From: Liolophura sinensis
Taxonomy: Eukaryota; Mollusca; Polyplacophora; Chitonida; Chitonidae
Assembly: GCF_032854445.1 (NCBI RefSeq)
Contig: NC_088302.1
Span: 51,800,046-51,864,045 of the forward strand
Direction: 5' to 3'
DNA length: 64,000 nt
The notes below the pieces were generated by a model. The model did no database searches. It was not told the origin of the DNA and saw only the letters and a list, made by a program, of their open reading frames with translations. Shown piece after piece: positions 6,808-63,556 of this stretch (positions are counted from its first letter, which is position 1; each line of letters begins with the position of its first letter). Position numbers and translations under genes: made by a program.

Positions 6808-6975
6808 CTTACAAGTACCCTGTCTCTAACTTTTAGAAAGATGACCTATCACTTCAAGTTAACTTGAATGGTAATTGGCTGTTTGGACTCAGCTCATGTA
6901 GTAGATAATTCATCACTCTTTTCTACATGATTTAGTGCTGTGTTAACCACCTGAAATGGTCCACTAAACTTGGCC

Positions 6976-32977: not shown

Positions 32978-34097
32978 AACTACCGGACAAAAGAAACGTA
33001 TAACTTTTAAATGCATTTTTTTCTATGGAAAAATAAGTTGAATAAGTTTGAACGTTGTGCGAATACATTTGCACATAAGCACCCTGTGTACACGTCACTT
33101 TTTAACGAGATTCATTGAAATTGGTGTAAGACATCATGAAAAATCGGAAAAACAGAGTTTCGGGCCCTGTTGAAAATTCTCGATAATGACCGCCGTATAA
33201 ATACCGATGTAGCACATGGTAAGGGTGCAATACCATAAAAAACATCTAAGAGATGCCGAGACTCACACAAGCAGAACGTGATAGAGCCATTGGTATGGCC
33301 GACATGGGGGCCAGCCAACACCACATTGCCAGAACATTCAATTGCAGTCAAGCCACCATCAGCAGACTGTTGGGTCGTTACCGCCTAACAGGCAGGACAC
33401 AAGATCGTCCAAGATCGGGCAGGTCAAGTGTTACAACGCCTGGCGAAGACCGGTACATCCGCACAATCCACTTGCGTAACCGGTTTGTGACGGCGACGTC
33501 AACGGCGGAAACGGCGGAAACGGCACTGGGACACCCCATCAGCAGACGCACAGTCTTACAACGACTCCGCGTGAGTGGTATCAGAGCCTATCGCCCCTTC
33601 CGTGGAATGGCATTGACTCCTCTACACCGTCAAAACCGGCTGCGTTGGGCAAGAGTTGTACGTCGACGGCAGCGACGAGACTGGGAAAGGGTGCTGTTCA
33701 CTGATGAAAGCCGATATAACCTCTTCAGAAATGATGGTCGAATTCGTGTGTATCGACGCAGGGGAGAGCGATCGGCACAAAATTGCATTCAGAATGTCCA
33801 CCCTTTTGGTGCTGGTGGGGTGCTTGTATGGGGCGGAATTTGTGGACAGGTGAGAGCGAGATTGGTCATCATCCAGGGAAATCTGACTGGCCAAAGATAC
33901 CGAGATGAAATATATTACCCCATGCCTTCTTTACTCGGCCTGACAGCAAGTGTAATATCCATATGGCTTTGAATTTTTGAACAGAACTTGGAAAATGGTT
34001 TATTGCAATATAATGTTTATCATGTTGATACTGTCTGTTTTTCTTTCTCTTTCTTGTGGTGCTGAACAAGGTTATACGTTTCTTTTGCCCGGTAGTT
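32978..34097 (+). mobile_element. Tc1/mariner-superfamily transposon with intact ends and internal deletion
   Basis: 27-bp terminal inverted repeats at 32978-33004 and 34071-34097 differ at one base, start AACTACCGG, and are flanked by TA on both sides (32976-32977, 34098-34099), the superfamily's target site. Length 1120 bp is short for Tc1 elements (about 1.3-1.7 kb) because the transposase C-terminus is deleted. Confidence 0.93.
33253..33972 (+). pseudogene. Tc1-like transposase, C-terminally truncated (239 aa)
   Basis: N-terminal paired-type HTH (about residues 20-45, QHHIARTFNCSQATISRLL), a linker GRTQDRPRSGR, then the start of the DDE catalytic domain with the first Asp in LFTDES (Asp151) and GGVLVWGGI. 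The frame leaves homology after GQRYRDEI (~residue 219). The second Asp (usually in a QQDNARPH block) and the third acidic residue are gone. It could still bind DNA ends but not catalyse transposition. The frame up to the deletion is unbroken, implying a recent insertion or deletion. Confidence 0.92.
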
Positions 34098-38838: not shown

Positions 38839-39972
38839 TCAGCTGTATGGGTTTATATACAAGAAGTGAAGCCCATACCTGTCTGTTTGAACAGGTAATC
38901 TATGCGCTATGAACTCGGCCATTCTTCCCGCCAGGTGTTGTTTCGTCTGTTTCGTCAGGTCGTCACAGTTATGATGCAGACTGATGTTCACGACAGGGTC
39001 TGCAGTTCCGGCTCGTAACATCGCCACGCCAGTCTCAACCTCCAGAACTGTATTCTTAAACAAAACAGCCACTCGTTCCAAGAATACATCACATTTCACT
39101 GGAAATATATTACTAATAACTAGTAATGAATACTGCGTTTAACTCACTGAATGCTGATCGTGGCTGTCTAAATGTATACGGTACATTTAGAAACAAACAA
39201 ACATATATAGCAATAACGTCCAACCTTCTATACTGTGTGTACCGGTACCGAACTATAAGTGTAGTTCCACAGAGACTTGTATATTACCCATGTAATTAAC
39301 ATTTCTTGGATTCATTTATTTCTAAAGCCAGGCTCAATTAACATCTGACAAATAACATATAATTGAGCTTTACTCTGAAACTTGACTCTATAAGCCAGTC
39401 TTAACAGAGGTCACGGCACGCATTCTCATTGGACGACGTTTTTAGTTGCAGAGTAACAAAATTCTCACTACCAAAATCAATAGATAAATTTGTAATGCAC
39501 GTGCGATACTTGTATTGCCACCAATTAAGGCAATCTTAATAAAGTCAGTCCCCATCTCTTAAGCGCATATAATACATTTATCCAGCTTTTATCAAAATCT
39601 GTTTTCTGAATTCTGTCCTCGATGTGTTGAAATTTTGGGAATTAACTGTATAATTTTCAAACAAGCAAAAGCCCATAAGGCTATATATAAGGCATAATGG
39701 CAGTACTTAAGAATATACTTTAACTGTCCGTGCCAAGTAACGGGTCTTTTCGTGCTCAAATTAAATGGGCTATTATAATCAAACAGCGTTATATTCAGAC
39801 ACAGTTCTTCGACACAACGGAGTAACAAACCTCTTTTTTTTATACCCAGATACCATACCTGTAAATTTGACTTCAACAGGTCTACTAGATACGTGGATAG
39901 CTGATTCAGAAAGTCACCAGTTATAGCCTGCTTGTCTAGGTTTGTTCTGACCACAGCACAGACACACGCCAT
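38839..39972 (-). CDS. MIF/D-dopachrome tautomerase family protein, two (or more) exons
   Basis: Exon 1 is 39972-39859 (38 codons, starts MACVCAVVRTNLDK, contains GDFLNQLSTYLVDLL, donor CAG/GTATGG, phase 0). Exon 2 begins at 39054 after acceptor TTTTGTTTAAG and reads NTVLEVETGVAMLRAGTADP then VVNISLHH, RMAEFIAHRLPVQTDR. These align without gaps to MIF exon 2, including the 16 residues from the exon start to the AG(G)T turn. Splice positions match MIF (exon 1 ends at Gln, exon 2 at DR). If exon 2 reads through, the protein ends YGLHFLYINPYS at 38839 (109 aa; MIF is about 115). If the donor AG/GTATGG at 38879 is used, a third exon is expected, which I did not find. The catalytic N-terminal Pro is absent (Met-Ala-Cys instead) and the CxxC is absent. 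MIF proteins are cytokine-like tautomerases; activity here is doubtful. Confidence 0.68.
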
Positions 39973-43922: not shown

Positions 43923-43941
43923 TCAACAGGCTGGAAACGTT
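43923..43941 (-). CDS. PPME1: PPME1 exon 16: 19-nt terminal coding micro-segment
   Basis: After the exon 15 donor (CACAG/GTAGGC at 44447) the next plausible acceptor is TTATTTTTGCAG ending at 43942. The spliced codons are R T F P A C stop, matching the VFPGC C-terminus of vertebrate PPME1. Without splicing, exon 15 would stop at once at TAG, giving ...NFHR. The FPxC match and correct phase favour the spliced form. The stop codon lies at the edge of a degenerate minisatellite that forms the 3' UTR. Confidence 0.8.
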
Positions 43942-45601
43942 CTGCAAAAATAAGACATAGTGTTATGAGTAATAACCATTGTTATTTTTCAGCTAATTAA
44001 AGAAGAAATCAGTGCAGCAAATGGAGGTAAATGTGGAATAATGTACTTAAATACATATTCTGCATGGCACAAAAACCAGCCTTTCTTTGCCCCAAAAGAA
44101 TTTGTGGAATGTCTCTAGACTAATGTTCTGCATACTTTATTTGATATAAATATAATTTATCATAATCAATTAATCGATTTAATATTATTTATTTACTAGA
44201 ATGTTTGTCCTCCGCAAAAATACCAGATACACCTCGATTTCAATTACAGGTGAAATAGTGAAAGTGATTTGATACTGCCACCTTACTGATAAGTGGACGA
44301 CTGCCTGAGGTGATACAAAGTTAACCTCTGTCTCCAATCAACACACAGCAAAGGCCTGATAGCATGACTAACTGTACACTAGGGAGGATAAATGGACGGT
44401 TGCATGTCCTTTATGTCTCGTAATCTAATAGTCTCTGAAAGCCTACCTGTGAAAATTTGCTGTAGGCTCTGCCACCTTATGTCGTACCATGAATGTGGCC
44501 AGCACATCAGCAACCTAGAAACAAAAAAACTTTCCTTTCATCTAAAAAAGCTCACCATTTTATCTTAGATACAGCAAACTCCCAGACAAATTAATGTCAA
44601 TGTACAGGTACCATATATTTGACATGTTACAGAGAAGAGCACTGTTGTCACAACACCATCATTCCATCCTGCCATGATACATACCGGTATCCTACAATGT
44701 CAGTATTCTACATTTTGGCACATTTTCATAGTTTAAATTTTCACATATCCTGACAAATTCACAACCTCTTCACATACATACTTCAGAAATGTTCTTCTTC
44801 ATTTAACTAATAGTATGGCCAATATGCCCTTTGTTTTTACTATTTGGAAGTACCAAAGGGTTGGGAAAATAGGGTTGTTTAACCAAATAAAACATAGTGT
44901 CTCACCTTATCTGGGACATCCTCATGAACTGCATGGCCACACTGTGGTAACACCTGCATCTGGAACTTGCCTAAGAACAAAGAACAAGACTGTAGCTAGG
45001 TTGCACAAGTATGAAATATAGCACACCTTATTAACTATAAACATGCCAAAATTACTGTTGGTAAATTTTAGCTATCAAAAATGTGATGAGCACCTCTGGG
45101 ACTATATTTATTTATTAATCTAAATGGCTTTTCATGTCATACTGAAGAACATTTCACTTTGTAACGGCAACCAACATTAAAGTGGGAGGCACCCACAACC
45201 ATCTGAAAGGTGGCTGGCATAACTTGCCACATACGAACACAGAGGAAGGCAGGATGAGCTGGACTTGAACTCACAGCGACCACACTGGTAAGAGCCTCTT
45301 GAGTCAAAGTGCTGAGCTAGCACACTAACCACTCAGCCCTCTGAACCCACATAAAGGCAGCTACAATTTGGTAGCAAAAGGTAAAATTTTCAGGTTTTAT
45401 GAGGCCTCTTGATATTGTAAAACAGACAGTGATTTGAAAAACAGAAAAAAATATATTTACCCTCTTTTAGTATTATCAGATGGAAAGCTGTATCATTCAA
45501 AATTATTAGCAAGATGAGTATCATTTGACTTTATCTGACAGATATGTTACATTCAGCAAAATGAACAGATATGTATCATTTGGGGCTTTTTTAGACAGAT
45601 A

Positions 45602-45647
<46 letters not shown>

Positions 45648-48600
45648 CAATGTGTGAACAGACAGTCCCAATGTCAATGATGGACAAACTCACCCTGCAT
45701 CTGGCCTATAGTTAGATCTTTGTCCAATCTATCAACACCTACAAAAGATCAGTAATACTTGTATAATATTGTTTGGCTCAGACATCGCTGATAGGGAATT
45801 CTGCCACCAGTTATTCCCATTCAAAGCGACAGTGCAAGTAAGATATTGCACCTGAAAAAACAAAAAAATGCTCAAACACTTCTTCACATAAAGTCTAGAC
45901 AAAGTCTTGAGTATACAAGCTTACAGAGATATATTCTAACAAGTTTGTGGCCATGGAGACAATGAAAGCAATAAAACCTGTGACAAATCTTGTATCTCAC
46001 TTCTATTATACATCTAAGCAAAGTTCCACGCGTCACAGAAACCAATGTGAAAAGAGATAAGGAGTCTGTGAACTTCAAGCTGACCATGCAGCAGGAGTCA
46101 TTAGATCACTTGGCCAGTCAGTGCCTTACATGTAGTTGGCCCCAAGTGATCCCAGTCTACTAGTAGTTCATTTATTTATTTGGTCTATTATGCAACAATT
46201 AACCTTCACTAGGAAAGTGGTCAGGTTCAGAATAGGTCAGTGTCAGGATTTCATGAGAATTCTGAGAAGCCCTCTGTCAAAAAGAGTACATACACAAATT
46301 GATACCGTCACCTCATATGATCAAGTATGCCAATCTGTAGACAGCGTCAGTACCCAAGGAACCAAGTCCATTGATTGGCCAACCAGCACCACATTATTTA
46401 TTTATTTTCAAACGTGAAACTGTGAACACATGTATAACAGAATCAACATGGCAAGGTGAAAAAGCACCCAAATTTTTGCTTTATTCCCTATTTGTTTACC
46501 CAAATGAATATGCATGCACATGTACACAGCACGGAAGTCACCTACCTGCCAACAGTAACAACTTAGATGCGTGACACTCAAGAAACAGTTGGGAAAGACC
46601 CTTAAACCAGCCTAAAATCAGAACGAAAATGAAAATAATAGAAACTGTTTTGAAGACACGAAAAACACAATAAATCCTCACAAAAACTTTCAACATGTAT
46701 GTCTCTAGACACACATTTATTCAATTGTGAAACTGTTCCAATCACCAAAATTCTGACATGCATTAAGTTAAGGAATTATCAGGTCATTTAGTTGGGATTT
46801 AATGCTGTACTCAACAATAAATCACTTCCACGAACAGTCAGTCTCATGGGTTCAGGAAACCGCAGAATAAACCACCAGTCTTTGGTAAAGTAACTGACTA
46901 ACTTTGCCACATATGATGTACAGATGAATGTCACAATGATGGAAGGCAAATGCTCTCAAGAGAACTTCACCCACATGGCCGCTCAACTGCTTAGAAGTAC
47001 AAAGGCTTTAAGAACAGTGGCAGTGGCTGACTATCTATGATTTCCTGTTGGAAGCTGGAAATGAATTAATCATGTTGGGATTGTATGATAGACACCTTAA
47101 CCAATCAGCTGCAACCACCCCAAAGTTTTGAAATGGTTCTATCTACTAACATTATAAGGCACTTCTGATAAATGACCAGACAAGATGAAGGCAAATCTTA
47201 TGGGTCGTGATCATGAATCACTAAGATCCATGATTATAATGACATTTTTTCACACTTACTTAGTCAATAATAAAAAAATATCAAGTAACAAAGATTGTTA
47301 AGTCTCCTCTTCTAAGGGGGAAAGTGATGACATACCCGGCCAGAATTGCTCTGTGTTTGACAAGTCAATCCTCCATGTGTACTTCACATCTGACACATTC
47401 TACAACAGTACAACATAACCACCATGAGGTTTGTAACATAATACAACATAAATTACCATGAGGTTTGCAACATAGTACAACATAACCACCATGAGGTTTG
47501 CAACATAGTACAACATAAATCACCATGACGTTTGCAACATAGTACAACATAACCACAATGAGGTTTGCAACATAGTACAACATTAATCACCATGAGGTTT
47601 CCAACACAGTACAATATAAATCACCATGAGGTTTGCAACATAGTACAACATAACCACCATGAGGTTTGCAACATAGTACAACATAAATCACCATGAGGTT
47701 TGCAACATAGTACAACATAACCACCTTGAGGTTTGCAACATAGTACAACATAACGACAATGAGGTTTGCAACATAGTACAACATAAATCACCATGAGGTT
47801 TGCAACATAGTACGACATAAATCACCATGAGGTTTGCAACATAGTACAACATAAATCACCATGAGGTTTGTAACATAGTATGACATAAATCACCAGGAGG
47901 TTTGGCAACATAGGTATTTAACAGCAAGACCTAAATAAAGGTGAGTTCATTTCACAAAACAGATGTGCTAAAAAATGTCATCAAAAGTTTGAAGGAAAAT
48001 GTCAGGTCTTACATAATGACATTTGAAGTTTGCCTCTTACTGTTACAAAGTGCATTATTAAAACTGGATACCGAATGCTCATAATGCAAGCAATAACAAT
48101 TTTCTGAATATTTACACTAAAAGAAGAAGACAGAACCAATTAACCTTTGGGCATGATCTCCAATAAACATGTATCCCAGTTCTCTTTACTCATTTGCAAA
48201 CACAGATTACAAGAAACAGAGTAAAATTCCATCATAGTAATTCAATGCATGTTATTAAATTTTTTTTGTTATGATAAATACGCTCACACACCAAAGAAAC
48301 CAGACCGAATATTCCAGGGAAGTAATTACCCCTTGATCATGTGTCACAGGTTTTGTGTTATCACATTCCTTGTGGGTTGCCTCCCCTTCTTCCTCCTGCT
48401 CCTCTGCTATGGTGGTGTTTTGATTACAACTGTTGGCAGCTGCGTCCACCTCGTGGTCTAACACTGCAGTGGCTGTCTCATCTGTATCCACTCTGAGATT
48501 ACATACATGGGTAAGAAACTGGTCTACGATGAATTTTACATGACAACAAAAAAAAGAGAAAAGTACCGATACCTACAAGTACATGCATTATCATGTTTCA

Positions 48601-51600
48601 AATTATACAAAAAGTTATGTGTTCCTCATATTTTTTTACCAAACACTTTACAGCTGACATGGCTATGGCCTTACGTTTCAGCCATGGTGTTCATAGATGT
48701 ACATACAGATGCCTTAAAATACCACAATGTTCCCAAAGTGACCACAAAACCTGTGAACAAACAAATTCTATTTGAGAGTATACAACAAGTTTGACGAACA
48801 GCTGCCGGCAAGCTGTTCAAAAAGTCAATTAGTCCAATCAGCGGCCATCACTTGATCAAATAACAAAGAACAAGCATTTTTTAATTACCCTGGGCTTACC
48901 TTTTGACCTGTCCAACCATAGAGACCCTGGCCGACTCTAGATTCCGGACCTGACCACTACGTACACTGCACAAAACACACAAGATACAAAATATTGACGG
49001 CAATGTCAGCGAGTTAGTGTTGAAACTTTTTTCTTTGATAAAACAATTAGAAGTTTAACCAGAAGAGCTTGCTTTTGAATCTTCCTAATTACTATACTTT
49101 TAAACAACATTTAGTCCTTATTTTTGTATAAAGGAAACTGCATACATGCTAATGGTAGTGATACACGGAAACCTTAAATATCAATAAATTATGTACTTCA
49201 TTAAGCACATCTCATTTTCTTCATAACTTATAATATTAGCATGTACAGTGATTGGTCTACTTCTCTGCTGTTGAAACACTCAGCTCACTAACATATCAAT
49301 GGTATTCCTGGGACACCACCTTGTATTAGAACATGAAGGCTGGTACGTTGTCAGAACATATAATACCAGACTGGCCAACTCCCTTTTATTGTGAGCAGTC
49401 TTTGCTGGTTTCTTATACATGTATAACTACACTATCTTCGTAGTGCACTATGAATAAATTAAAACTTTTTATCAATAAGAGATGTAAACTGACCACCACT
49501 CTATTGCCTGCTCCAGTGAGTTAAATGTCTTTGGTCTACTGCGAAGAAATGTTTGCATACTGCTCAATGCTTCCATAGCTGTGCCTGTCAGCAAAAACAA
49601 ATGAAAAATTTCAGTGGAACATGCTTCAGCAGCTAAATATAACCAAATTCCCTACATGAATCAGTAAAATTTCACAGCATCGGATGATTTTACTTAAAAC
49701 AGAACACAACCGACCAAAAATTAAAATGATAGAAGTTCACATTGGAACAGACGCACACAGACAGACTGAGGTTTTCTTCTGTGATGTGGTAGTGCTTGTG
49801 CACTTCATAAGTTTCACCAATAATGGAGTACCACAAAAGGTGGTGCTAGTGTGAATTAGCATGCCACAAGTCTTTTGCGGCACAACGCTAAACATGTTGC
49901 ATTCTGTGGTTTCATTTGGTCTATCCACTGTTGATGCTGCAGTGGAATGTCCAGCATCACTGACGTGATGTAATACGTTCCACTTCGGACTTCTGCTGGC
50001 ATCCACCTGTGACGTAATACAAGAATGAACATAGCTTTGGACCATTTTGTTACGGGCATAAAGGAGTTTTATGAGTTCCCCATTTTGGCTGAGAGGTATG
50101 CGTATGGTATGACACCATTCCCCTCTTACCTTCAACAACATCAATAACCACCAGGCCAATCAAGGTGGGTACTAGCTCTCTGTGAGCGGTATGAACTGCT
50201 ATAGCACCACCCATACTGTAAACACAAACAGAACAGCGAGCAGGCATGTTACCAGATACATGTACCTATGCACATGTACTATACAGATGACCAGGTTAAG
50301 GGATGAAAATTGCAGACAATGTGAAATCTTCTTATCCACAGATTCTCAGAACACATGATTACACAATCAATTTCATAAGTCAACTTTGTTACTGTAGGCA
50401 AATGAGTTTCATGAGAACTAGTGTCTGAGAATGGCGTTACATATTCCCAGTCACGGCAACAATGAATTTATATATTCATCTGATTAGCGATCAATGTCAC
50501 ACTCAAGAATTTTTCACTTATTTGATGGCGGTCAATTTTATGAGTGGAGAAAATCGGATTGTGCTTGACAGCGGCTAAAATATGACCAGATCTAAAATGA
50601 CTTTACAAGTACAGCTCCAAGTACACAAGTGACTTTATCAGGCAGATAACTCAGTACAAATTAAGCATACCTGTGACCAATGAGTATTACAGGTGGAGGG
50701 TTGTCCCCATATAATTTCTCTATGACCTTTCCAACATCACTGTAACAGTAATTGACATCAATGATATATGAAACAGCCCATGACAAAACAAGGACTGACT
50801 TATCTCAACAACAAAAACTCACGTACATGTAGAATAACGCTTTCCATGTTGAAGAACAGATGAGATGTTTACCTCATTTCTCACAGTCTTTTGACTTTTA
50901 AATGTTACTTGCAATGTATTGCCAGTAAACATGAACTTTATAACTTTTGAAGCTCTTTTAGGACATTTTAAAACAGCCATGAGTTAAGCTTGTAACAGTT
51001 GGTCACACCAAGCTTTCACTTAGTCACCGGCCAATAAACATAATACTGCCCTCAATTTCTACGCTCGTCCATTGGGCAACCAAAACCACCCTCAATTTCT
51101 ACGGTCGTCCATTGGGCAACCAAAACCACCCTCAATTTCTACGGTCGTCCATTGGGCAACCAAAACCACCATGTGGTTGTGCATCGGACTATCAAAAGCC
51201 GGACGAATTTAAGACGAGGCTTATGTGGAATTTACATCAATGTATGCTGGACATAAATGGCCCGCGAGCCTATAAAACGGTGATCGTGACACACGTGTAA
51301 GCTTTACGCCACTAAGACAGTTGTGCATGTGGCCAGCCAACTCCCAACAGACCGGTCACAGTGCCCATGACAGCTGTGTTTATGCCCTTCCACCAGACAA
51401 TGGTTATCAAGTTTTGTATGTCTTTCAAGCCCTTCCTCTGAAACGTCTCCATTAGTCTGAGATAAGAGGAAAACATTCTGTGAAATTAATTACTTAACAC
51501 TTCTGTAAAAACCTAACGAAATCGGGATTTCTCACACCTGTCAATCTCACTGGCTACATGAGGAGGTGCTTGTGCAATGATACAGCTTAGCCTCCTTTGC

Positions 51601-54600
51601 TACGCGCACAAAACAAGCCTTGGCTTCGGTACGACACAGAGAGAAAATAAATGTTTTGCAAAGTATGCAAAACACATTATTCAGATCAAAATTTCGTTAT
51701 AGGCTGCTCCTGCCTTAGAATAGGAAGTCTTAAAACGCACCAGAAAATTGAAACACACCAGAGAGCAGTGGAGGTGGAAAAGACATCGCAAGCTAGACCA
51801 GGAACAACTCCTGTGGAACAAGGCGTAGGGAATATGAAAGGAAAAGCGTTAAATAAACTGAAAACTCGTTTCCAGTCCATACACTTGCTAAAAAATCTAG
51901 ACCATTTACAGACTATGTCTGGTCCTGTATTCTGAAAGAAAAGAAGGGTGTTGACACAGGGCAAGCATACATGAATGATGTCAAGTGCAAGGAATTTACC
52001 AGCGCTATAGCCGAAGTGGAGCGGCAAAACTTGGAGAAAGGCGTCTCGGCACCACATATGTGATTGTCTGAATATTTCACTGGTAGCATGGAGAACAACC
52101 AAAAAAGGGGCCAACCTGAATCTAGGGTCATGGTTGCCCTGCGGACAACCTCAAAAAATTGCTAAAATTGAGGGCTGTAATACATCTGTATATAACAAGA
52201 AACTGGCCAGCTCACCTGGACAATGTCTCTATGCACAGGTCTTTATCATCAGATGTAGATGTGTCACCTGAAATCATTAATACAAATCTGCTTGTGAGAA
52301 CCAATCAGAACACAGCACACCAGCAGTCATTCATAAACAATTAAAATTAACTTCATTTGTAAAATTTGTTATATGGGCTCTCACACGTGTACTTTAGTAT
52401 AGGGGATTTGTGAGGTGCTTCAAAAAATCTATATTTGGCACAAGCAATTCTCAAACCTTGCCCATATTAACATTATCACAACATTCACTCATGTCTGAAT
52501 CTACAATTTTTCTTACCATGGCCTCTGAGATCAATTGCAGCACATCGACAAGCAACTAGATTGGAGATGACAGACTGAAATAAAAATAATATAAGTCAGA
52601 TAATTCCACACACCAGCTCATATTTACCTACGACTACATGTAACAACAGCCCCTTCTGTCCTGTGAGTAAGGCTGCTTTCTAGTTTTAATGAGGACAAAC
52701 TTACGAAACATATTAGCTGAAGATTTAGCTTTCCGGTTGTTTTCTACAATCTTCACTCAGCTAAGAGATGCCACTCTCAAACATCCTTCTGTCAATTTGC
52801 ATAAGAGAATTTCTGGACTTTACTGCTACATACAATGTAAGTTACGGAAACCAAGTGTTCACATTAAAGAGTGGCTTCAATACCGACAAATGTTAAAAAC
52901 AGGTAATTACTCATTAATTCAACAAATAACTTTTTATGCTCATCAGTAGAAAGCGAGTCTAGAGATGCGAATTCAAGCTTCTCCAGGTATGCCAGGCAAT
53001 TGAATTTGAGGGATAACAACAAAACTGATTCAAAATAAAGGTATTCTTAATGACATAAAGATAGTCATGACCCAGAAACAATATTAAACAACTGAGCGAT
53101 ATATTGTTGTATACATACTGAAAGAACTGCCCAAGACAAAGCTGAGAATCCTCCTCCGTGGAGAAAAAACAGAACAGGTCCTTCATCTCCACATTCGTAC
53201 ACCCGGAATATCTAGACAATGTGATAGCAAGCCAAATAACTGAAGAACACTGGGGGAGATGGGAAAAGCAGGATATGGTGTTACCATCAAGTCTCTGACA
53301 TTACTAGTGACATGGCATGACGAAAAACAAATGAGATCTCTAAATTCACTCACAGAGGCTATTTATATAGATGTTCAGCTATAAACAATCATGAAGACAA
53401 TCAGACATCAACAAGGAGGCTGGGAAACATAGAACATATACTTTTAACATCAGTTTTGTTCAACAACTATCAGGACAACTTAACTTAACAAAAGTTATGT
53501 AAACTAACACACAGGACAAACTGTATCAAGTAACTGTACATCTTCACAGAGTTGGAGATACCATACACAGATGTACAAGTATTTCTGACAGATAATTTAA
53601 GAGCTCCTCTCACAGGAGTTGCATATTCTACTAGGTTTGAATAAACCATGCACTGCACACTTGAAGCACAACCAAAAGGATACATTTTCTTCGTCTAATT
53701 TGACATCATGCATTTTTTGAAAGTATTTGTCCCAGTGAACTGGAGAATAGTCTCTTCTTCGTTGAAAGCCCTTCCTACCGCCTGATGAACCACTGCAAGG
53801 AAAGAAAATCAGATTTATTAGTAGTATCCTTTGCTATCTCTTCTCAATGTCAACATTTTATTTACTTGAGATTAACACCATATTCAAGAATTCACTACTA
53901 TACAATATTAGATCAGCTAAAACCTAATAAACATGTACCTGCAAACAAAATACTGATGGTATGGTCAGGAGGGCTCCCCTGGTTAAAACAAAAACTCCTA
54001 AACTGACTTTCAAATAGTATGATCACTGCATGGTGTTCAACACTGCAGGGTGTTTAACATGATCGTACACTCTAAACTGAACAAGCTACCAGCTTGCTTA
54101 AGATTTATAACAGAATCAACACACTTTCTACTCTGAACTACGAAATTGCCAGTTACGCACATCTCCAAAACAAGGAAACCTTGTGTTCAAGGTAGGTACA
54201 TTCTGTTGACGCCTTCATGGTGGTAATGCCTCTGTACTAGAGCATGTACCAGAGTATGGTGGCAATGTGGTCAGAACAGAAAATAGGCCTTGTCCCATCA
54301 TTGATGCCTTGTCCCCTTATTGATACACAACTATTTTATGTGCAGATAGGTGGAGAGCTACAGCGTGAAAGCCAATGAATTTGAGCAGCTCTGGTCTACT
54401 CCTAAACAAGGCTTAGCATAATGACATGGTGGGTTTCAGCTGATGAGGGGGTACCTCTCCTGGTGCAGAAATATTAGCAGTATATGGAAGCTATGCTTAA
54501 TAACTATATGTTAAAAGGTGGAGCAAGACCTTTATTGAAAACAGCTGATTTTATTCAATGTTAGACCCTTACTCTCTCTCTGTAATGTTTACCCAAGGAT

Positions 54601-55693
54601 TCATGTCTAAACAGCTGTATTACCAACCCAATTTCATTTACATTTGGTCTGTAGTTCTCCGTTAATCAGAAAATAAAAACCATAACACTTCTGCAATGAC
54701 AAAGACAATTAGCCAAATCAGAGTACCAGTTTTTTTAGCATCAATACTTCCACAACACTATTCAAGCAAGTACAAGAAACGGAGCTGCAATCTGTCTAGT
54801 CCATCTAGATAGGCTCAAGCGTTTCATGCCGTCAGGGAGGAGTTAAGAAGACTGAAGTTGTGTTTAGAGATGGCCATGAAAATATATAATAGTTTTCTGG
54901 AACATTTCAATTCCAAAACTCAGTTACATTGCAAACCCACAAGCAGGTCATGTGACACTTCAAAAGGGCTGTTGGAGAGATGCTCGATGCCACTGACATT
55001 CAAGCAGTCAATGTGATCACAAGGTAGCCAGCTAATTTACTTTCACTGGAGAGGACAGTAAAATACGATGAGAGAGTATTCAAACCTCAACCAGAAAATT
55101 ACATAGAAATGAGCGGAGGAGGTGCGTTAGATTCTGAGAAACATTGGCGGGAAGGAGAAGAGAGTTTGAAACTTGCACCACATTTTTGGAAAGGCAGGCA
55201 TGTTTTACGCTGGATGTCAGAATTTTTAAAATACTACACTAAGTTCATTTAGATGGAGTACTCTTTCAGGCTAGTGCCATTTATTTTATTTTCATGACAG
55301 TGAGTGACTGACTGATTAGGACGAGTGAGGCACAATTTCGGCTTGAAGCTGAATGTGGGTTAGTATAGAGACCGCTGTGGCGTCAATCCACTGTCAGTGT
55401 CACAAAATTACTACAACAGGCCTAGCATTGCTTCTACTACCACTAGCAGTCTTCCGGACTCCCTTAGTAAACAGAGAATGGAGTAACTGACTGAGGTCCA
55501 GTTATCGTCATGTTGACTTGATGAAAAATGATAGTTTTGATAAGTAGATCAAACAAATTAATTCCACAATAACGAAAGTTAATTCCAAGCATTGAAAAGT
55601 GGTTGTGTATCTTGCTTACCCCAAACCAGGTGGTGGCATTGGCGGTAGTCCGCCTATTTTACCCTTCAACACTTCTCTCTGCATAGCAGACAT
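43923..55693 (-). CDS. PPME1: Protein phosphatase methylesterase 1 (PP2A methylesterase), complete coding region in 16 exons
   Basis: Alpha/beta-hydrolase serine esterase that removes the methyl ester from the C-terminal leucine of the PP2A catalytic subunit and binds PP2A; cytosol and nucleus. Coding exons in order: 55693-55620, 53792-53684, 53211-53119, 52574-52517, 52267-52216, 50739-50671, 50215-50130, 49584-49494, 48965-48900, 48492-48330, 47399-47336, 46611-46546, 45738-45694, 44970-44906, 44514-44447, 43941-43923. All junctions are GT-AG and phases match, giving 395 codons plus TGA (human is 386 aa). Visible: RRDYSPVHWDKYF N-terminal motif, oxyanion HGGG, nucleophile elbow GHSMGG (Ser152), VVIDVVEG (Asp177), QCGHAVHED (His358), C-terminal FPAC. 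The start MSAM at 55693 matches the vertebrate MSAL start; a 5' UTR intron is likely because TTTTTATTTTAG ends 13 bases upstream of the ATG. Divergent from C2CD3. Identity is very secure; the donor of exon 10 and the last exon are the least certain boundaries. Confidence 0.95.
44906..44970 (-). CDS. PPME1: PPME1 exon 14: catalytic His
   Basis: Reads KFQMQVLPQCGHAVHED then VPDK, nearly the same as vertebrate PPME1, with the catalytic His358 in QCGHAV. Acceptor TTCTTAG, donor GTGAG, in phase with exon 13 (which ends LTIGQMQ) and exon 15 (which starts VADVLATFMVRH). Confidence 0.94.
45104..45345 (-). mobile_element. Family A SINE, diverged, in the PPME1 intron between exons 14 and 13
   Basis: TTCATGTCATACTGAAGAAC, AACATTAAAGTGGGAGG and GAGCTGGACTTGAACTCACA in reverse orientation; about 20-25 percent diverged from other copies by eye. 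Sense with PPME1. Confidence 0.72.
45604..45641. repeat. (TA)n microsatellite in the PPME1 intron after exon 13
   Basis: About 38 bp of TA, beginning some 50 bases past the exon 13 donor in mRNA sense. Confidence 0.97.
47400..47905. repeat. 33/34-bp minisatellite (15 copies) in the PPME1 intron before exon 11
   Basis: Units contain GAGGTTTGCAACATAGTAC followed by AACATAACCACCAT or AACATAAATCACCAT. In part of the array the two spacer types alternate, giving a ~67-bp dimer period. The array touches the exon 11 acceptor at 47400. Confidence 0.93.
48330..48492 (-). CDS. PPME1: PPME1 exon 10: acidic, low-complexity insert
   Basis: Encodes a 55-codon stretch rich in Asp, Glu, Thr and Asn, including EEQEEEGE, at the position of the acidic EEEEEDEE loop of vertebrate PPME1 that lies between the core and the lid region. 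It is poorly conserved apart from charge. The loop makes the Ser-to-His spacing 206 residues here against 193 in human. Acceptor AATCTCAG at 48493; donor chosen as GTAATT after a GGG codon (phase 0). An alternative in-phase donor GTGACA lies about 24 bases upstream in mRNA sense. Confidence 0.85.
50130..50215 (-). CDS. PPME1: PPME1 exon 7: nucleophile Ser and catalytic Asp
   Basis: Begins in phase 2 so that the Ser codon of the GHSMGG elbow is split across the intron (CAC AG at the end of exon 6, T at 50215). It continues MGGAIAVHTA and ends in VVIDVVE, carrying the catalytic Asp177, 25 residues after Ser152, the same spacing as human Ser156/Asp181. Acceptor TACAG, donor GTAAGA. An open frame runs on into the intron to 50050, but that extension is not coding. 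Confidence 0.95.
50490..50565 (-). mobile_element. Family A SINE remnant in PPME1 intron 6
   Basis: Short fragment TCACACTCAAGAATTTTTCA ... GATGGCGGTCAATTTTATGA, reverse-oriented and strongly diverged. Confidence 0.5.
51050..51171. repeat. 40-bp tandem repeat, 3 copies, in PPME1 intron 5
   Basis: CTCAATTTCTACG recurs at 51051, 51091 and 51131, each followed by TCGTCCATTGGGCAACC. The copies are nearly identical, so the duplication is recent. Confidence 0.92.
51651..52110 (+). pseudogene. Broken transposon-derived zinc-finger gene fragment (KIAA1586/ZNF862-like), antisense in PPME1 intron 5
   Basis: An open frame from the ATG at 51651 encodes a TTF/C2H2-like finger of the form MFCKVCK...NFVIGC...LKTHQKIETHQ. 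This is the N-terminal finger of the hAT-derived ZNF862/KIAA1586/C17orf113-like family. It stops at 51935. A second frame from ~51948 reads GVDTGQAYMNDVKCKEFTSA, the block that normally follows in this family, and then ends at a stop. The two pieces are out of frame and no catalytic or dimerisation region follows, so this is a dead fragment. The family call is from memory of motif patterns. Confidence 0.6.
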
Positions 55694-56215
55694 CTTTTTA
55701 TACTCTCTAAAATAAAAACAGGCTTGTCAAACTAAGAATATGGCTAGTTTTGAGACCAAACTATTAAACAAAATCACTCATATGTTATTTTTATATATGG
55801 AGTCAGTTGTTTACAAAATAAGATCTGATACAAAGTATATAATGATAATACAAAGAATACTTTTAAAACTATGTGAAGGCTATTTTTAAAACTGCTAACA
55901 GCGTTAAGAATTTTTGAAGCATACACTCTGCCGTATATAGTTGTCTTTTGTTGACTCGGTTTTGGGCATGTTGACAATTTTGAAGGATAACTCAATCCAT
56001 TTGTAACTTTAAAGTTTAAAAATAAAGGCTTTTATTAACATTTTATTGCCTATCAAGAACTTTGTATGTTAGGATCTAATGCAGAGGTTACATTACATGT
56101 TGTTTCGGAGGTTGTGTGTATGGCGGACAAGTTTAGACTAATGTTTTGTATGGAAACGAAATGGCGCTACATTTGACACCTGTGTAAGGGATGCTGTTGA
56201 ATGTTTTGATGAAAA
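55694..56215. promoter_or_regulatory. Shared divergent promoter region of PPME1 and C2CD3
   Basis: 522 bp separate the two initiator codons. Near the C2CD3 side are ATGGCGGAC (56120) and ATGGCGCTA (56161), which resemble the YY1 core AAGATGGCGGC often found at housekeeping start sites. No convincing TATA box sits at a sensible distance on either side; the TATAAAAAG just upstream of the PPME1 ATG is inside the presumed exon. No long CpG-rich block is seen. Human PPME1 and C2CD3 are also arranged head to head. Confidence 0.65.
56120..56176 (+). other. Possible upstream ORF in the C2CD3 leader (18 codons)
   Basis: ATG GCG GAC ... TGA, ending 39 bases before the C2CD3 start codon in a different frame. 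It counts as a uORF only if transcription starts upstream of 56120, which cannot be told from sequence. Confidence 0.25.
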
Positions 56216-56273
56216 ATGAAGCCTGGGAAGGTTGGGAAGAAAAAGGGGAAGCACAAGTCATCTAAGAGTAAAG
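56216..56273 (+). CDS. C2CD3: C2CD3 exon 1: start codon and lysine-rich N-terminus
   Basis: ATG at 56216 opens 19 codons of Lys/Gly/Ser-rich sequence and stops at donor AAAG/GTCTGT in phase 1, which joins correctly to exon 2 (G/AT TCA, giving Asp). The open frame beyond the donor, to 56504, is intron. Confidence 0.85.
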
Positions 56274-59200
56274 GTCTGTTCTCATGCTAGGGTAATCTCG
56301 TCCGCGTTCTGTGTTATGATACTAGTAAAGCCATTTGTCGGCGTGTACTGTACCACTACCAGCCCTCGATCATTCACTGGCACAGGCCTGTGTGTTTACC
56401 GCAAAAACGACGCATTGCACTTTAGGGCAGTGAAACTAACTTACAACAAAAATGGGGCGAGTGAGAAAAACATTTCTGTAATGCCAATGCGGCTTAAGTT
56501 TTAGATACAGAGTGAAATTTGTTTCTATGTTTTGGTATTGACCTCTCATTGACTGATGTGCCATCACAGGCTTTGAATGAAGTTTAATCAAAATCTTGGT
56601 GATTTGCCTGAATTAATAAAGCAGATTTATCAGGTGCTGTACTGGTGAATGTCGGTGATGTACTCCTCATTGGCACAAATGTTTTCACCATCCATATACC
56701 TGACAACGGCCTAAAATACACCACTAAGTAGAAAATTCTTGTTTATTGTATCTAACTATGAAATTTAGTTTGGTTGTGACGATGTGAATATTTTGACATG
56801 CCATCACATAGACTGTGAGATAGGTGAACATTGCCAGCAAGCAAATGTTCAGTAATCTATAGGTCAGTTACTTGGGTGAAGTGTTGAGGATCAAATGCAT
56901 TCGAAGCTTAATGGATGTCCAAATTTGATCCAAAAGCTAAAAATCCCAAACTAAGAGGAGTTAGAAGCTTCAAAAATAAGTTTATTTTTTATTAATTTTA
57001 ACATCGAAAATGTGTGCTTTGATATTACTTCTTACTCAGTCAATATTAAGTTGCATATTTACCTAATACTGTATTAGATATAGTTCCACAATTTCTCAAT
57101 TTTAGCCCAAATTAGGAAACTCAAAAGGGTGCCCATTTTAACAAGCTGTATTGGACCTTATTGGTGTCAAATATCAATCATATAAATCAATCAATAAATG
57201 AATAAATATATGTTTGCATTTTCAGATTCAAGTATCTCCTCTCAGGTAGAGGATGTTCAGGTTCACACAGGGCTTCCACCTCAGGTAGAGGGACAGCTGA
57301 GATGTTTCTGTCGGGTGTCTGTCAGTCAGATCACCTGGATTATTCCAAACCCCCCTCAGGTCACACATGTCCGTGTCAAGTGGTGGGGAGAGGCCGGAGA
57401 TGGGGCCATCTTCAGGTAGACAAACAACAAATTTTACATGGTTTAGATGTGATATTTTGTTTATATGTTTGAATGAGATTAGGGGAATTTGATCCTGATT
57501 TTTATGCTGCACTCCAGAATTTGTCTGTTATAATATAGCTATGGCTTCATGGATGTAAGAAATTAATTGACCAGATTAAAGAAAATAAGAAAAGAAAGTT
57601 TGATTTGATGCCATTTATGACATGTTTACATGTACATCTCTTTGTGGACCATGTATTTAGCAAGTCATCATTGGAGCTTTGTTCATGATCATTTTTAGGC
57701 CAGTGGATGTGAAACACCCCGACAAGGTGGTGCCCAAGATTACAGCCAGGTATCCTGTAAGATCCGGACCAAAACAGTTTGCTGCCTACCTGAGTGATAT
57801 CCTTGATGTGAACTGTCTGTTACACGTATAATGCCTTTTCATGAAGTTAAATTTATTCTGTGTGGTATCACTTGTAAATGTTTATTTATTTATATACTTA
57901 TTTCATTGTGATTTTCTTTTTCCTTTGTTTTTTGTTGTGTGTAACACTCCAGTTCCCTTTGTGTCATTCGATGAAAACAGCTTTGTGAAATTGTTGAACG
58001 CCTGAAAAAAGTGATCTTTCATGCAGTACAGAGCAATTTGCTTTTGAAACTAATTGTTACCATATAAACACAGCTATGTCCAATAATTATGGAATGTGAT
58101 TGAAAATTTGGTATTTTTGAGATATTTGGACACAGCCATTTGAATATGGGAAACTTTAATACCACCTGAAATAGATCTTCTACATGTATGTTGTGTACTG
58201 TATGCTGTATCTTTGCCCGTCCTTAACCAGTGTCACATATGGGCAGTTTGCTGATAGAGGTGTTAAGTGGTCCCTCCAGGATCCCTGTGGGCAGAGCAGA
58301 GGTGCCACAAATTAGCCTCCTCTCTTCTTCCTATCCCATCAGCGGGTAAGTCCTCTTGCTGTTACACATTTTTTTGTAGTTCATAAAGAGTGAATTTCTT
58401 TCAACTGGTAAGATATTTTTGTGGCTTTATACAAGGGTTAAATTCTCCTGTGTGCTATTGTCAGAATTTGTCAGAAGTGAGATGCGTTTAACAAAGCGGA
58501 CGTAATGTTACGTGCATGAAACTACAAGGTGACCAGTACTGTTGGTATGATGTTGTCATGGTAATTGTGCGTAATTTGCAGTACGTCGGTTTTGTGAAAA
58601 ATATATTTTCAAAATTCAAAAACTGTTCATTTCAGGTCTTTTCCAGTGTTTTCTTCAAATGAAGACAAGATTGCAGAAATCCAGTTGTCTGTTATGCTAG
58701 AGTCTTTGATGGGTAAGTTTATGGTAATGGGGGAAAAAACTGTGTCTGATTTCTGGTATTCTCTTTGCACTGAGCCGTAAATAGGATTTGCTGAAAAAAA
58801 AATCCCCTTAATACAGTAAATCAGGGTGTATTTACTGTGAGATACATGTAGATAAGATGCAGTTTGACTTTCCAAAGAGTTAATTTGTTTTGCATCATAG
58901 ACCAGTGACGTAGTGGCTTGCTCCTTGTCAGCCATGTTCATTGACTGTAGCTTGAAAGATTATTCTAACCAAATTACTGTTAGGTTATGTCTGAATCTAG
59001 AGTAATTACATCATTGATATGAAACCTCTCTTTGCCATTTGCCTTAAATACTGTTTGTTGCATCACAAGGTAATAAAGTCAAGGTATGCATTAAATCTTA
59101 AGTAGCCAAGACAAAAATCAAAAATGCAATTTTTACGGGCTCTGCTCCCACAACTGACATAAATCTGAATACAAACCTGTTTTGTTGGCAGCTTCCTATT

Positions 59201-62200
59201 ACAGTATGGGCTCTACTCCCACAACTGATGTAAATCTGAATGCATGCCTGTATGGGCTCTACTCCAACAACTGGCATAAATCTGAATGCATGCCTGTACG
59301 GGCTCTACTCCCACAACTGGCATAAATCTGAATGCATGCCTGTATGGGCTCTACTCCAACAACTGGCATAAATCTGAATGCATGCCTGTACGGGCTCTAC
59401 TCCCACAACTGGCATAAATCTGAATGCATGCCTGTATGGGCTCTACTCCCACAACTGGCATAAATCTGAATACATACTTGTTATGTTGGCAGCTTCCTAT
59501 GACAGTATGGGCTCTATACCCACAACTGATATCAGTGGCCACACTGTAACCAGCAGTCAGGGCCCACGTTCCGTCCTCCCGAAAGAGTTACAGCCCTCTC
59601 CCTACACGCATCCAACTAGGAACTCGACTGAGGACCCATTCGCTTCTCCAGCCACAAACAAGGTGAGAAGAGTATTCTGGGACCTAGTGAGTTTGAATTC
59701 GCCAATACAAATCCATGTATTAAATTTACTCAGTAGTAAACATATGATTTTATATCACTTACATGTATTGCCCTTGAAGTATTCTAATTCTTGGTCATTT
59801 TTTTTTTATATTTTACAGTTATCGTCTATTGTTTTAATATGAAAAAATGCAAAACCACATCTGCACGTATTTTTTGCGTTTCTCATAATTTGATTAATTG
59901 TTTCATTTTGAAAAACGTCCAGAAGTCATCTGATGGCCTTTGAGCAGGACCGGGTTAAGGTTTTATGTACAAGTGGCAGCCATGACAGAACAATGAGTGT
60001 TGAGCTTCGGACATGTGGAAATTTAGTGATATATGGTTGTGATTATGTGTGGGTGATCCAGATCTCACAGTTCTCCTGTCATATACAATGATTATAACAA
60101 TTTCAGAATGCAAAGATCACAGTGTTATTTAAAGCCCTATTTTAGCTGCGAACAATGTTTTTGTCTGGTTTCCTCCACCCTTTAACCATATAAGGGAAGG
60201 CTCCTCAGTATTCTATTTAACACCAACCAGTGAACTTCAGTGTTTTTTGTCTGGTTTCCTCCACACCTTAACATGACCACTGTCACATAAGGGAAAAGCT
60301 CCTGAGTGTTCCATGTAACACCTACTTGTTTATCAGTCAGTCAGTCAAGCAATGTTTTGTTACCAGACGGAAAGTCGGAGAGGCAATGACAGCATGAGCA
60401 GTGTTCGGCACTTAGACGACTTTGAACCTGCGGATGAAGAGAGACGACTGCGTCCACAGGAGAACGGAGATAGAGTGTTTATTACGACTAGCGGTGATGT
60501 GATAAGGACCAACCCTACAGGCTTTAGTCAGACAAGTCACCAGCCCAGTGTCGCTGCAGGTATTGTTTTGTACATGTGGCATGATTAGGTCATTGTAATA
60601 GAATTTCAGTCAATCCTTATGTCTACTTTTAAGTTTGTACATAGGTATTCCCATCATTGTCCCAGGCTTTAGTGAAAGCAAGGGATATCAATTTGGGTCC
60701 ATCTGTCATGTGTTTTCAGTGCGACAGCTGCACCAGGTATTGTCTTACTTTACTGGGATGAAGTTCAACAAAATTCAGAATCAGTGCAGAATAAGTTTTG
60801 TGTATTGAAGGATTTCCTTCTCTCTGTTTGCTGCCGTAACTGCTTCAACTATTTGATTAAAATTTTAAGGGTTGATTCATTTTGTGGCCCCTCAGGTAAA
60901 GTTCAAAAACTGTCTTACTCCATGTTCTACTCATCCATTTGGAGAACAAAGAGGTCACAGGCTCAAATCCAGCTGTTGCTGACACTGGTTTTTCTATAGC
61001 GAGAGGTTTGTCAGGTGCCTAGTGGTTAGAGTGTCGCTATAGGTAGTCTATTTTATTTCCACCCATAAAACTATCATCATGGTATATAAGGGAAAAATTA
61101 TGGAATAAAATGTTTTGCACTAATGAAATTAATAATTAAATAACTTTTACTATAAACCTAGTAATAATTTGGATCAGGTAAAAAATTTGTGTCCATGTTT
61201 GTAGGGAGACACCCTGTCAAACTGGACCTGGCTGGGCCAGCATCAGGTGACCTTCTGGGGACACTACTGGACCGAGGGACCAAGCTTAGGGAGGCTATGA
61301 TAGTGTCCAGTCTGACCACTGAGCCCACTGATCCCACCTCCCACGACAGACCTCCACTGACCACCGCTCCCCTAGATCTACCCATGACCCCAAGTGTTAC
61401 AAGTTCTTCTAAAAGGTAATGCAGCAGAGCACGGACTGTGTAGATGCTATTGATTTTTAAAACTGTGACACCAGGTAGTATGATGTTTTCTAGTATAAAA
61501 GTGTTTATGTCACTGTGTTGTGTTGACACCATTTGTCTACCGGTAATGAACAGTTAATCGTTCTTCAGACATCCAGATGGAACATTGTACAATGGGCTCT
61601 CTGCCTCAGCAAGGCCGCCTTCCCCAGGCAAGTCTCATCTACCTGGAGAATCTGACCTGTCTGATATTGAGGGTCGGGCAGTGGATCTGATCATGGGACA
61701 GACCATTACCAACAAGGAGTATCAGGTAGGTACCAAATTTATACACCCTGTTTCTGCGAACCATCCTACAGAAATATGTCAGAGCACTTTGGTGGCCTAG
61801 TAATTGGAACCTTCACCTTGAAGTTGGGAGACATAATATAAAAACTTGGTCGGGTCATACCAAAGACTTGGAACCTATTGCTGCCTCGCACTCAGCACTG
61901 AGAGGTTAGCGCAAGGAGACAGGACTGATTGGTCCATTTTCCATATAATGTGACTGGGTAGGGTGTCATATCTGGTGTCTTCAACATAATACTTCAGTGT
62001 GGCAGCTCTTTTGCTGCATGGACTTGCCCTGCCACAAGAAGACACAGTATATGTACACACATCTAATGACTCCTTCTGGGCATATGACTGAAAAATTGTA
62101 AAGTATGATATAAAACCTCAAGGATACATACATTAAAAATTACGTCAGATTTGGTGTTCTATTCCAATTTATAGCACACATCAATGTGAACACAGCCTCA

Positions 62201-63556
62201 CATGTATTGAGACTTGAGAGGCTAAGCCGTGGGAAATGGTGAGCATGCTGATTTTGTGACATTCAAACTGTTACTGGAATGCACTAGGACATTTTCTTCA
62301 TTTTTTGTTGAACTGGTACATGTGATTGAAGAACTGGGTTTCATGTGTGTTCCTTCAGATTGTTAAATTTGCCATCCACTTAACCGGTTCCATTTAGGAA
62401 TAGTGATATCTCTTAGTTGTGAGTTGTCATCTTTTGTGTTGTTAGTACCTGCGTGCCTTTGACAGTAGCCCTCGCTCCAGTATCTCGGATGATGCAGACC
62501 TGGCCAGTGATCTGGGGGACCCTCTACATGACGACACCATTATACAGGAGCTCTTCTACAAACACTCGGTAAGTTTCATTGTTTCTGAGCCTTATATCAG
62601 GTTTGGCTGGCGAGGTCTTGTTTGTCGAGCTTACATTTTTAGTATACAATGTTTGTTGTATAATATTGTACATTGACCATTATCAGTTAACCATAATATC
62701 CTGTTACATGTGTTTAGTTGAGCTCTCATTTCCGTGTGTGTTTTACAGAAATGTATTTTGTTAGTGACATCATTTTGATAGGAAATCATTTGTTAAATCT
62801 CTGATTTATGTCCCACTTAAATCTTCATCAAAGAATTGTATTCAGGAACAGTAGAATAGATCCATTTATGTTACATACCAGGGAGTTAGTTTGGATTCTG
62901 TTTGCATTTGGTCATCATTCAGCCAGTGAATATGTCACCTCACCTCGATCACTGTTCTAATATTGTTTTGTAGGACAGTGAAGACAGCATTATGAGTGGT
63001 ATCAGTGCAGATGAAAGTCGTATCAGGAGCAAGTCAAACTGCTCCATCACATCTGTAGAAGACCCTGGAAATATGGTAACATGAAAGATTTCCACTGTTT
63101 GTTTTCCTTGTACTCTGCCTGTAAACAATACACTCAAAATATAGTTAGCCACCAACTAGTCCACCTGTCAAACTCTTCAAGCTGTATTACTCATCCTCAA
63201 CTTTACATACCTACTTACTCAAAATTTTCAAGTCTTAATTAGATTTAAATGTGAGAAAGTACTGATGTTGCGTAAATGTTTTCAGCGACCTCCATCGCGG
63301 CGGTCATCTGTATCAAGCGGTGCTGAGCTGGCAGCCCTGGAGAAGCAAATCCGTGCTGAGACACCAACCAAGAGGAAACCCAGAGCAAAGGTGAAGACGA
63401 AGAAGACCAGAGTGGTAAAGAAGCGGAGACGATCGCGCAGTGTCACAGGGAGTGTGAGCAGTGTCAGTGACAGCGGGGACATGAGCACACCCAGGTCAGA
63501 GACGTCCAGGGTCTCCTTTGACATGACCCCGTCTGATTTAGATGAACCAGTTGTTG
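56216..63556 (+). CDS. C2CD3: C2 domain-containing protein 3, N-terminal part (12 exons, runs off the right edge)
   Basis: Centriolar protein needed for centriole elongation, distal appendage assembly and ciliogenesis. Exons: 56216-56273, 57226-57415, 57699-57793, 58231-58345, 58636-58712, 59493-59662, 60367-60559, 61205-61415, 61569-61725, 62446-62568, 62974-63075, 63286-63556. Phases chain to about 587 codons; the vertebrate protein is about 2350 aa. Key matches: LPPQVEGQLRCF and VRVKWWGE (exon 2), SGPKQF (exon 3), SYDSMGSIPTTD (exon 6), DLLGTLLDRGTKLREAM (exon 8, residues ~315-331), IIQELFY (exon 10). Exon 12 has a Lys/Arg-rich stretch (residues ~526-546). The exon 3/4 junction is the weakest: donor A/GTGATA at 57793 is chosen because it keeps phase with exon 4 (MGSLLIEV). 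The start MKPGKVGKKKGK resembles the basic N-terminus of vertebrate C2CD3. Confidence 0.95.
57226..57415 (+). CDS. C2CD3: C2CD3 exon 2: start of the N-terminal C2-like domain
   Basis: Acceptor TTGCATTTTCAG. It encodes LPPQVEGQLRCF, ITWIIPNPP and VRVKWWGEAGDG, the family's most conserved N-terminal block. Donor TTCAG/GTAGAC in phase 2 leads into exon 3 (RPVDVKHPDK). Confidence 0.95.
59136..59492 (+). repeat. Intronic 46-bp minisatellite built from the 5' edge of C2CD3 exon 6
   Basis: Seven units beginning GGGCTCTACTCCCACAACTG precede the exon, and the exon itself is the eighth variant (GGGCTCTATACCCACAACTG). The boundary between units 1 and 2 (59181-59209) also holds a copy of the acceptor with the first exon bases (TTGGCAGCTTCCTATTACAG). 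Confidence 0.9.
59493..59662 (+). CDS. C2CD3: C2CD3 exon 6, with its 5' end copied into the upstream intron
   Basis: Acceptor GTTGGCAG at 59492, phase 1. Starts ASYDSMGSIPTTD, matching vertebrate SYHPLPTTD, and ends ATNK before donor GTGAGA. The first ~38 bases plus the acceptor recur in the tandem array immediately upstream. Confidence 0.9.
63286..63556 (+). CDS. C2CD3: C2CD3 exon 12: Ser-rich and strongly basic segment
   Basis: Acceptor GTTTTCAG, donor GTTG/GTAAGT. Encodes RPPSRRSS, a short helical AALEKQIRAE stretch, a Lys/Arg block ending KKRRRSRS and then a Ser/Thr-rich tail. The basic block could be a nuclear localisation or nucleic-acid/acidic-partner patch (inference). Following coding exons lie past 64000. 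Confidence 0.85.

What the first reader, a model, noticed from the sequence alone, without database searches (positions are those of the whole stretch)
43923..63556. PPME1 and C2CD3 share a compact divergent promoter, as in vertebrates
Both genes are identified by many exon-level matches, their ATGs are only 522 bp apart, and they are divergent. Human PPME1 and C2CD3 are adjacent and divergent on 11q13.4. Conservation of this pair across bilaterians would suggest a functional bidirectional promoter linking a PP2A regulator and a centriole/cilium gene.
Basis: partly seen in the sequence, partly recalled or inferred. Interest (0 to 1): 0.7.

Follow-up and report, generated by a model that had tools for sequence, protein, structure and literature searches.

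The report
Ancient PPME1–C2CD3 head-to-head gene pair
In a chiton, the PPME1 and C2CD3 genes sit back to back with 522 bases between their start codons, and the same two genes are neighbours in land vertebrates; this is most likely gene order kept from an early animal ancestor, but fish separated the pair and nothing here shows that a shared promoter is why it lasted.

Summary
PPME1 (minus strand, 15 coding exons, 390 aa, ATG at 55693, stop at 44443) and C2CD3 (plus strand, ATG at 56216, 12 exons in the window, continuing past its end) are divergent, with 522 bp between the ATGs. Identities are firm and each gene was found at one locus only. By size and scaffold number the genome is the chiton Liolophura sinensis. 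Published work puts the genes side by side in tetrapods, so a mollusc with the same pair points to inheritance from the bilaterian ancestor. But "as in vertebrates" is too wide: in sea bass the pair is split over two chromosomes, so linkage is dispensable. The gap is AT-rich, without a CpG island or a motif set beyond chance. Transcription starts are unknown, and a fair splice acceptor just before the PPME1 ATG leaves open that PPME1 starts elsewhere. No other invertebrate could be checked. Verdict: an ancient microsyntenic pair, a new member of a known kind; a functional bidirectional promoter is plausible but unproven.

The parts
44443..55693 (-). PPME1 (protein phosphatase methylesterase 1), complete coding region, 15 coding exons, 390 aa; motifs GHSMG, IDVVEG and CGHAVHED present
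   Evidence: gene model; human PME-1 match E 1.6e-142; one locus. Catalytic role of the motifs recalled
55620..55693 (-). PPME1 first coding exon (MSAMQREVLKGKIGGLPPMPPPGLG)
   Evidence: aligned to the N terminus of human PME-1 (MSALEK...)
55694..56215 (.). 522-bp region between the two ATGs: candidate shared promoter region plus 5' UTRs; GC 31%, CpG observed/expected 0.58, no CpG island
55706..55724 (-). candidate 3' splice acceptor (CCTGTTTTTATTTTAG); its exon would begin 13 bp upstream of the PPME1 ATG; possible sign of an upstream non-coding exon
   Evidence: score 8.8, above 9 of the 25 modelled acceptors (1.6-15.1) on which the score was trained; background 0.63 per kb per strand, so not significant
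56120..56126 (+). ATGGCGG, core resembling a YY1 site (motif recalled); also the start of a short upstream ORF (MADKFRLMFCMETKWRYI) 96 bp before the C2CD3 ATG
   Evidence: 5% of 400 random 522-bp stretches hold one; the longer YY1 consensus is not met within 3 mismatches
56216..63556 (+). C2CD3 (centriolar C2-domain protein), first 12 coding exons, N-terminal part; gene continues beyond the window
   Evidence: Pfam PF25339 E 5.8e-45; one locus for the first 235 residues; continuation by eye

Best explanation
PPME1 and C2CD3 form an ancient head-to-head neighbour pair, most likely already present in the bilaterian ancestor and retained in this chiton and in tetrapods. Both genes probably start transcription within or close to the 522 bp between their ATGs, from two back-to-back core promoters in one open-chromatin region. 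Shown: identities, orientation and spacing here, single loci, and (from print) adjacency in tetrapods and separation in teleosts. Inferred: common descent of the arrangement, and transcription starts within the gap. The pair has probably lasted because a break in so short a gap would damage one of two housekeeping-type promoters, rather than because a PP2A regulator and a centriole gene must be co-regulated; when genome duplication gave teleosts spare copies, each gene survived apart. This last step is inference.
For: Gene models; PPME1 and C2CD3 family matches; one locus each; 522-bp gap. Tetrapod adjacency and teleost separation: PMC3428666, passages. Genome identity by size and 632 scaffolds: and PMC11068029, passages, species name corrected in PMC12441733, whole text. 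Ancient bilaterian microsynteny is a well-populated class: PMC8851819, passages, 256 new blocks at the bilaterian ancestor against 45, 48 or 56 in shuffled genomes.
Against: Only two lineages are compared, one of them from literature; the pair could have been made twice. The one wider 11q13 neighbour tested with an answer, the SPCS2 family, lies on another scaffold (C12), so no larger block is shown. No RNA data place either transcription start. No promoter signature exceeds chance.
Confidence: 0.8

Rival explanations
1. A functional bidirectional promoter: shared elements in the 522 bp co-regulate PPME1 and C2CD3, and this co-regulation (PP2A methylation state with centriole assembly) is what selection has preserved since the bilaterian ancestor.
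For: Head-to-head arrangement within 1 kb by ATG; adjacency in tetrapods; PMC2871058 (passages) takes divergent genes under 1 kb apart to share a promoter and argues that conserved divergent pairs tend to be functionally related.
Against: Teleosts split the pair and kept both genes. In the gap 13 of 17 motif patterns had no hit and none of the other 4 clearly beat random stretches. In PMC2871058 only 8.5% of 924 conserved human divergent pairs closer than 1 kb were judged functionally related, and enrichment of short divergent gaps was not seen in fishes or non-vertebrate animals.
Confidence: 0.25
2. Adjacent but not promoter-sharing: PPME1 has a non-coding first exon spliced to the acceptor at 55706, so its promoter lies inside C2CD3 (intron 1 or further) and the two 5' ends overlap or lie over 1 kb apart.
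For: Acceptor of ordinary strength just before the PPME1 ATG; donor candidates scoring above 6.1 on the same strand at 1006 and 1369 bp upstream (C2CD3 intron 1) and 1641 bp upstream (opposite C2CD3 exon 2).
Against: An acceptor this good is expected about 0.33 times in 522 bp per strand (from the rate); no donor above that score lies within the 522 bp; the coding first exon aligns directly with the human N terminus.
Confidence: 0.15
3. The adjacency arose independently in chitons and in tetrapods.
For: Only two lineages are compared, and chiton chromosomes are heavily rearranged (PMC12005716, abstract start and passages).
Confidence: 0.04

Closest known systems
C2CD3-PPME1 neighbour pair of tetrapods (human 11q13.4)
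   Same: Same two genes, adjacent (PMC3428666, passages); divergent in human (recalled)
   Different: In human the promoter is CpG-rich and the starts are under 100 bp apart (recalled); here the gap is AT-rich with 522 bp between ATGs and no CpG island. No UCP, DNAJB13 or P4HA neighbour was identified here, but the searches that would show this did not complete or not made
Ancient bilaterian microsyntenic gene pairs and blocks (PMC8851819, PMC5429095, passages; Irimia et al. 2012 cited there, not held)
   Same: Neighbouring genes kept together since an early animal ancestor
   Different: The enhancer-in-a-bystander type involves a developmental regulator (PMC5429095); neither gene here is one. 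PMC8851819 counts blocks, not single pairs
Divergently paired genes with bidirectional promoters (PMC2670823, PMC2871058, passages)
   Same: Opposite strands, under 1 kb apart by ATG
   Different: Starts unmapped; no CpG island, and no Sp1, CCAAT, NRF1 or E2F pattern found

Membership tests
Divergent (bidirectional) gene pair | Adjacent genes on opposite strands, head to head | tested here: met
   Gene models
Divergent (bidirectional) gene pair | Transcription start sites under 1,000 bp apart | not testable with these tools
   Only ATGs known (522 bp); no RNA data; possible upstream exon
Bidirectional promoter (functional) | One regulatory region drives both genes, with coupled expression | not testable with these tools
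   No expression or reporter data
Bidirectional promoter (functional) | Mammalian signature: CpG island or Sp1, NRF1, ETS, CCAAT sites (typical, not defining) | tested here: not met
   GC 31%, CpG o/e 0.58; no such patterns; mollusc promoters may simply lack this signature
Ancient bilaterian microsyntenic pair | Same orthologues adjacent in a protostome and a deuterostome | tested here: met
   Chiton by sequence; tetrapods from print only (PMC3428666)
Ancient bilaterian microsyntenic pair | Pair found in further protostome and non-bilaterian lineages | not testable with these tools
   No other animal genome is held; no invertebrate case seen in the paper listings (one search showed 15 of 260 papers, none naming C2CD3)
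Vertebrate-wide conserved pair | Adjacent throughout vertebrates | tested here: not met
   From print: split in sea bass, with the same flanks reported for the other teleosts compared (PMC3428666)
PPME1 orthologue | Full-length match to PME-1 | tested here: met
   Residues 1-388, E 1.6e-142; no tree was built
C2CD3 orthologue | N-terminal C2_C2CD3_N domain | tested here: met
   PF25339, E 5.8e-45, profile positions 2-143 of 145; C-terminal part not tested

The most novel reading that the evidence does not exclude
A bidirectional promoter at least as old as the bilaterian ancestor couples transcription of the PP2A methylesterase and a centriole gene, and works in this chiton without CpG content or the usual mammalian motifs; teleosts, which separated the genes, would be the natural experiment showing what the coupling was for.
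Probability: 0.2. Interest if true: 0.5.

Novelty: new member of a known kind. Interest (0 to 1): 0.25.

Why it matters
It adds one clean case to the ancient divergent gene pairs, with a built-in control: tetrapods and a chiton keep the pair, teleosts split it. That allows a direct test of whether such linkage reflects co-regulation or only a gap too short to break safely. In itself it changes no view of either gene.

Tried and rejected
Motif scan of the gap (17 recalled patterns with a null of 400 random stretches): 13 had no hit. ATGGCGG (1 hit; reached by 5% of random stretches), TATAWAW (5 hits, overlapping on both strands; 6%), TTTGAA (2 hits; 12%) and an Inr pattern (1 hit; 57%) do not stand out once 17 patterns are counted. 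The longer YY1 consensus was not met within 3 mismatches and the strict X-box pattern had no hit.

Wider synteny with human 11q13: the SPCS2 family (PF06703; its place on 11q13 is recalled) lies on C12, not C8 (3 of 3 matches). Searches for P4HA (PF08336), RPS3 (PF00189) and mitochondrial carriers (PF00153) did not complete. A first search with Abhydrolase_6 (PF12697) gave 4 matches, none in the window, and served only to place the window. Of 28 open frames of at least 150 aa outside the pair in 263 kb around it, 23 lie outside the window; 10 of those 23 were scanned: one rhodopsin-family receptor, one reverse transcriptase below its cut-off, six without a family, and two frames with scattered hits to bacterial families, one of them (MapZ_C2, 30.1 bits) over its cut-off, which I take for low complexity. 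Within the window 8 further frames were scanned: a reverse transcriptase, a transposase, an RNase H fragment below its cut-off, a MIF-like match just over its cut-off, two chance-level hits and two without a family. So I cannot say which genes flank the pair.

Literature: 9 papers hold both gene names; passages were seen in two, PMC3428666 and PMC3064598, both on UCP gene neighbourhoods; the other seven were seen in the listing only. No held paper joins 'bidirectional promoter' with C2CD3 or with PPME1. Irimia et al. 2012 (PMC3514665) and Li et al. 2006 (PMC1487180) are not held, and the supplementary tables of PMC2871058 could not be read (no supplement look-ups allowed), so the pair may already be listed there.

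Full report
What is there. The window is contig C8, 51,800,046-51,864,045, of a 609.46-Mb genome in 632 contigs. That matches the Liolophura chiton assembly (609,495,693 bp, 632 scaffolds; PMC11068029, passages), whose species was later corrected from L. japonica to L. sinensis (PMC12441733, whole text). The match is by size and scaffold number, not by a sequence marker.

PPME1. Fifteen coding exons on the minus strand, ATG at 55693 and stop at 44443, give a 390-aa protein with consistent frame and 14 GT..AG introns. The exon ends were chosen by hand with recalled human proteins as a guide, so the proof of identity is the database match: human protein phosphatase methylesterase 1 (7soy chain P), E 1.6e-142, residues 1-388 against 1-379. 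In the whole genome 13 of 13 matches lie at this locus.

C2CD3. Twelve exons on the plus strand, 56216-63556, were modelled in the window. The N-terminal part matches Pfam C2_C2CD3_N, E 5.8e-45, over profile positions 2-143 of 145. Five of 5 genome matches of the first 235 residues lie here. Open frames that I read by eye as further C2CD3 exons continue to about position 88140 in window numbering; I did not build that part.

The gap. The ATGs are 522 bp apart (55694-56215). GC is 31% (mean of 500-bp windows 39%) and CpG observed/expected 0.58 (mean 0.64), so there is no CpG island. Of 17 motif patterns, 13 had no hit; ATGGCGG (56120) and TATAWAW were each reached by 5-6% of 400 random 522-bp stretches, which is not remarkable for 17 tests. 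Upstream of the C2CD3 ATG are short upstream reading frames, one beginning at that ATGGCGG. A possible splice acceptor would begin an exon 13 bp before the PPME1 ATG (score 8.8, above 9 of the 25 modelled acceptors that trained the score; background 0.63 per kb per strand), with donors scoring above 6.1 only at 1006, 1369 and 1641 bp upstream, inside C2CD3. The PPME1 transcription start is therefore not settled by sequence.

Comparison. In mammals, reptiles, birds and amphibians, C2CD3 lies just before PPME1 beside UCP2/UCP3; in teleosts PPME1 stayed beside UCP2/UCP3 (sea bass LG14) while C2CD3 survived on the duplicated segment beside CAMKK1 (zebrafish chromosome 15) or beside UCP3L and CAMKK1 (sea bass LG13) (PMC3428666, passages). 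The divergent orientation in human is recalled. A chiton and tetrapods sharing the adjacency is best explained by inheritance from the bilaterian ancestor; a rough chance figure for this pair and orientation is 1.8e-5, which is for a pair named in advance. Such microsynteny is a known class: 256 new blocks at the bilaterian ancestor against 45, 48 or 56 in shuffled genomes (PMC8851819, passages). The same paper says it remains unclear whether microsynteny reflects functional constraint or low recombination.

Reading. The pair is real and probably ancient. That its two promoters lie in one short region is likely; that this region is a selected, co-regulating bidirectional promoter is not shown. 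The teleost split argues that linkage is dispensable once a second copy exists, and fits a 'gap too short to break' explanation at least as well as co-regulation. Against my own reading: only two lineages are compared, one by print; the SPCS2 family, a wider 11q13 neighbour by recollection, lies on C12, so no larger conserved block is shown; and three further neighbour searches did not complete.

Limits.

Noticed in passing
window 59204-59475 (+), similar stretch also at 59137: Tandem array (46-bp unit, 5.9 copies, 94% matches) in C2CD3 intron 5 related to the start of the next exon (59493): the copy at 59208 shares GTTGGCAGCTTCCTAT.ACAGTATGGGCTCTA, acceptor included, with the exon, while the later copies share only the GGGCTCTA..CAACTG part. 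It looks like local duplication of an exon start, possibly offering a decoy splice acceptor.
   Followed up: partly
window 47407-47913: Tandem array with 34-bp unit, about 15 copies (also seen as 67- and 168-bp periods), in a PPME1 intron just before an exon.
   Followed up: no
window 51049-51170: Three near-perfect 40-bp tandem copies in a PPME1 intron (98% matches).
   Followed up: no
window 38842-39138 (-): Open frame with a weak match to the macrophage migration inhibitory factor family (PF01187, E 4e-5, 24.3 bits, just over the cut-off of 22), beyond the 3' end of PPME1.
   Followed up: no
window 6250-6825 (-) and 33250-33969 (+): Transposon remains: reverse transcriptase (PF00078, E 3.5e-17) and a Tc3-type transposase (PF01498, E 7.8e-14).
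   Followed up: no
L019:5982-7193 (-), about 43 kb before the window: A 404-aa open frame matching the rhodopsin-family receptors (PF00001, E 8.7e-32).
   Followed up: no
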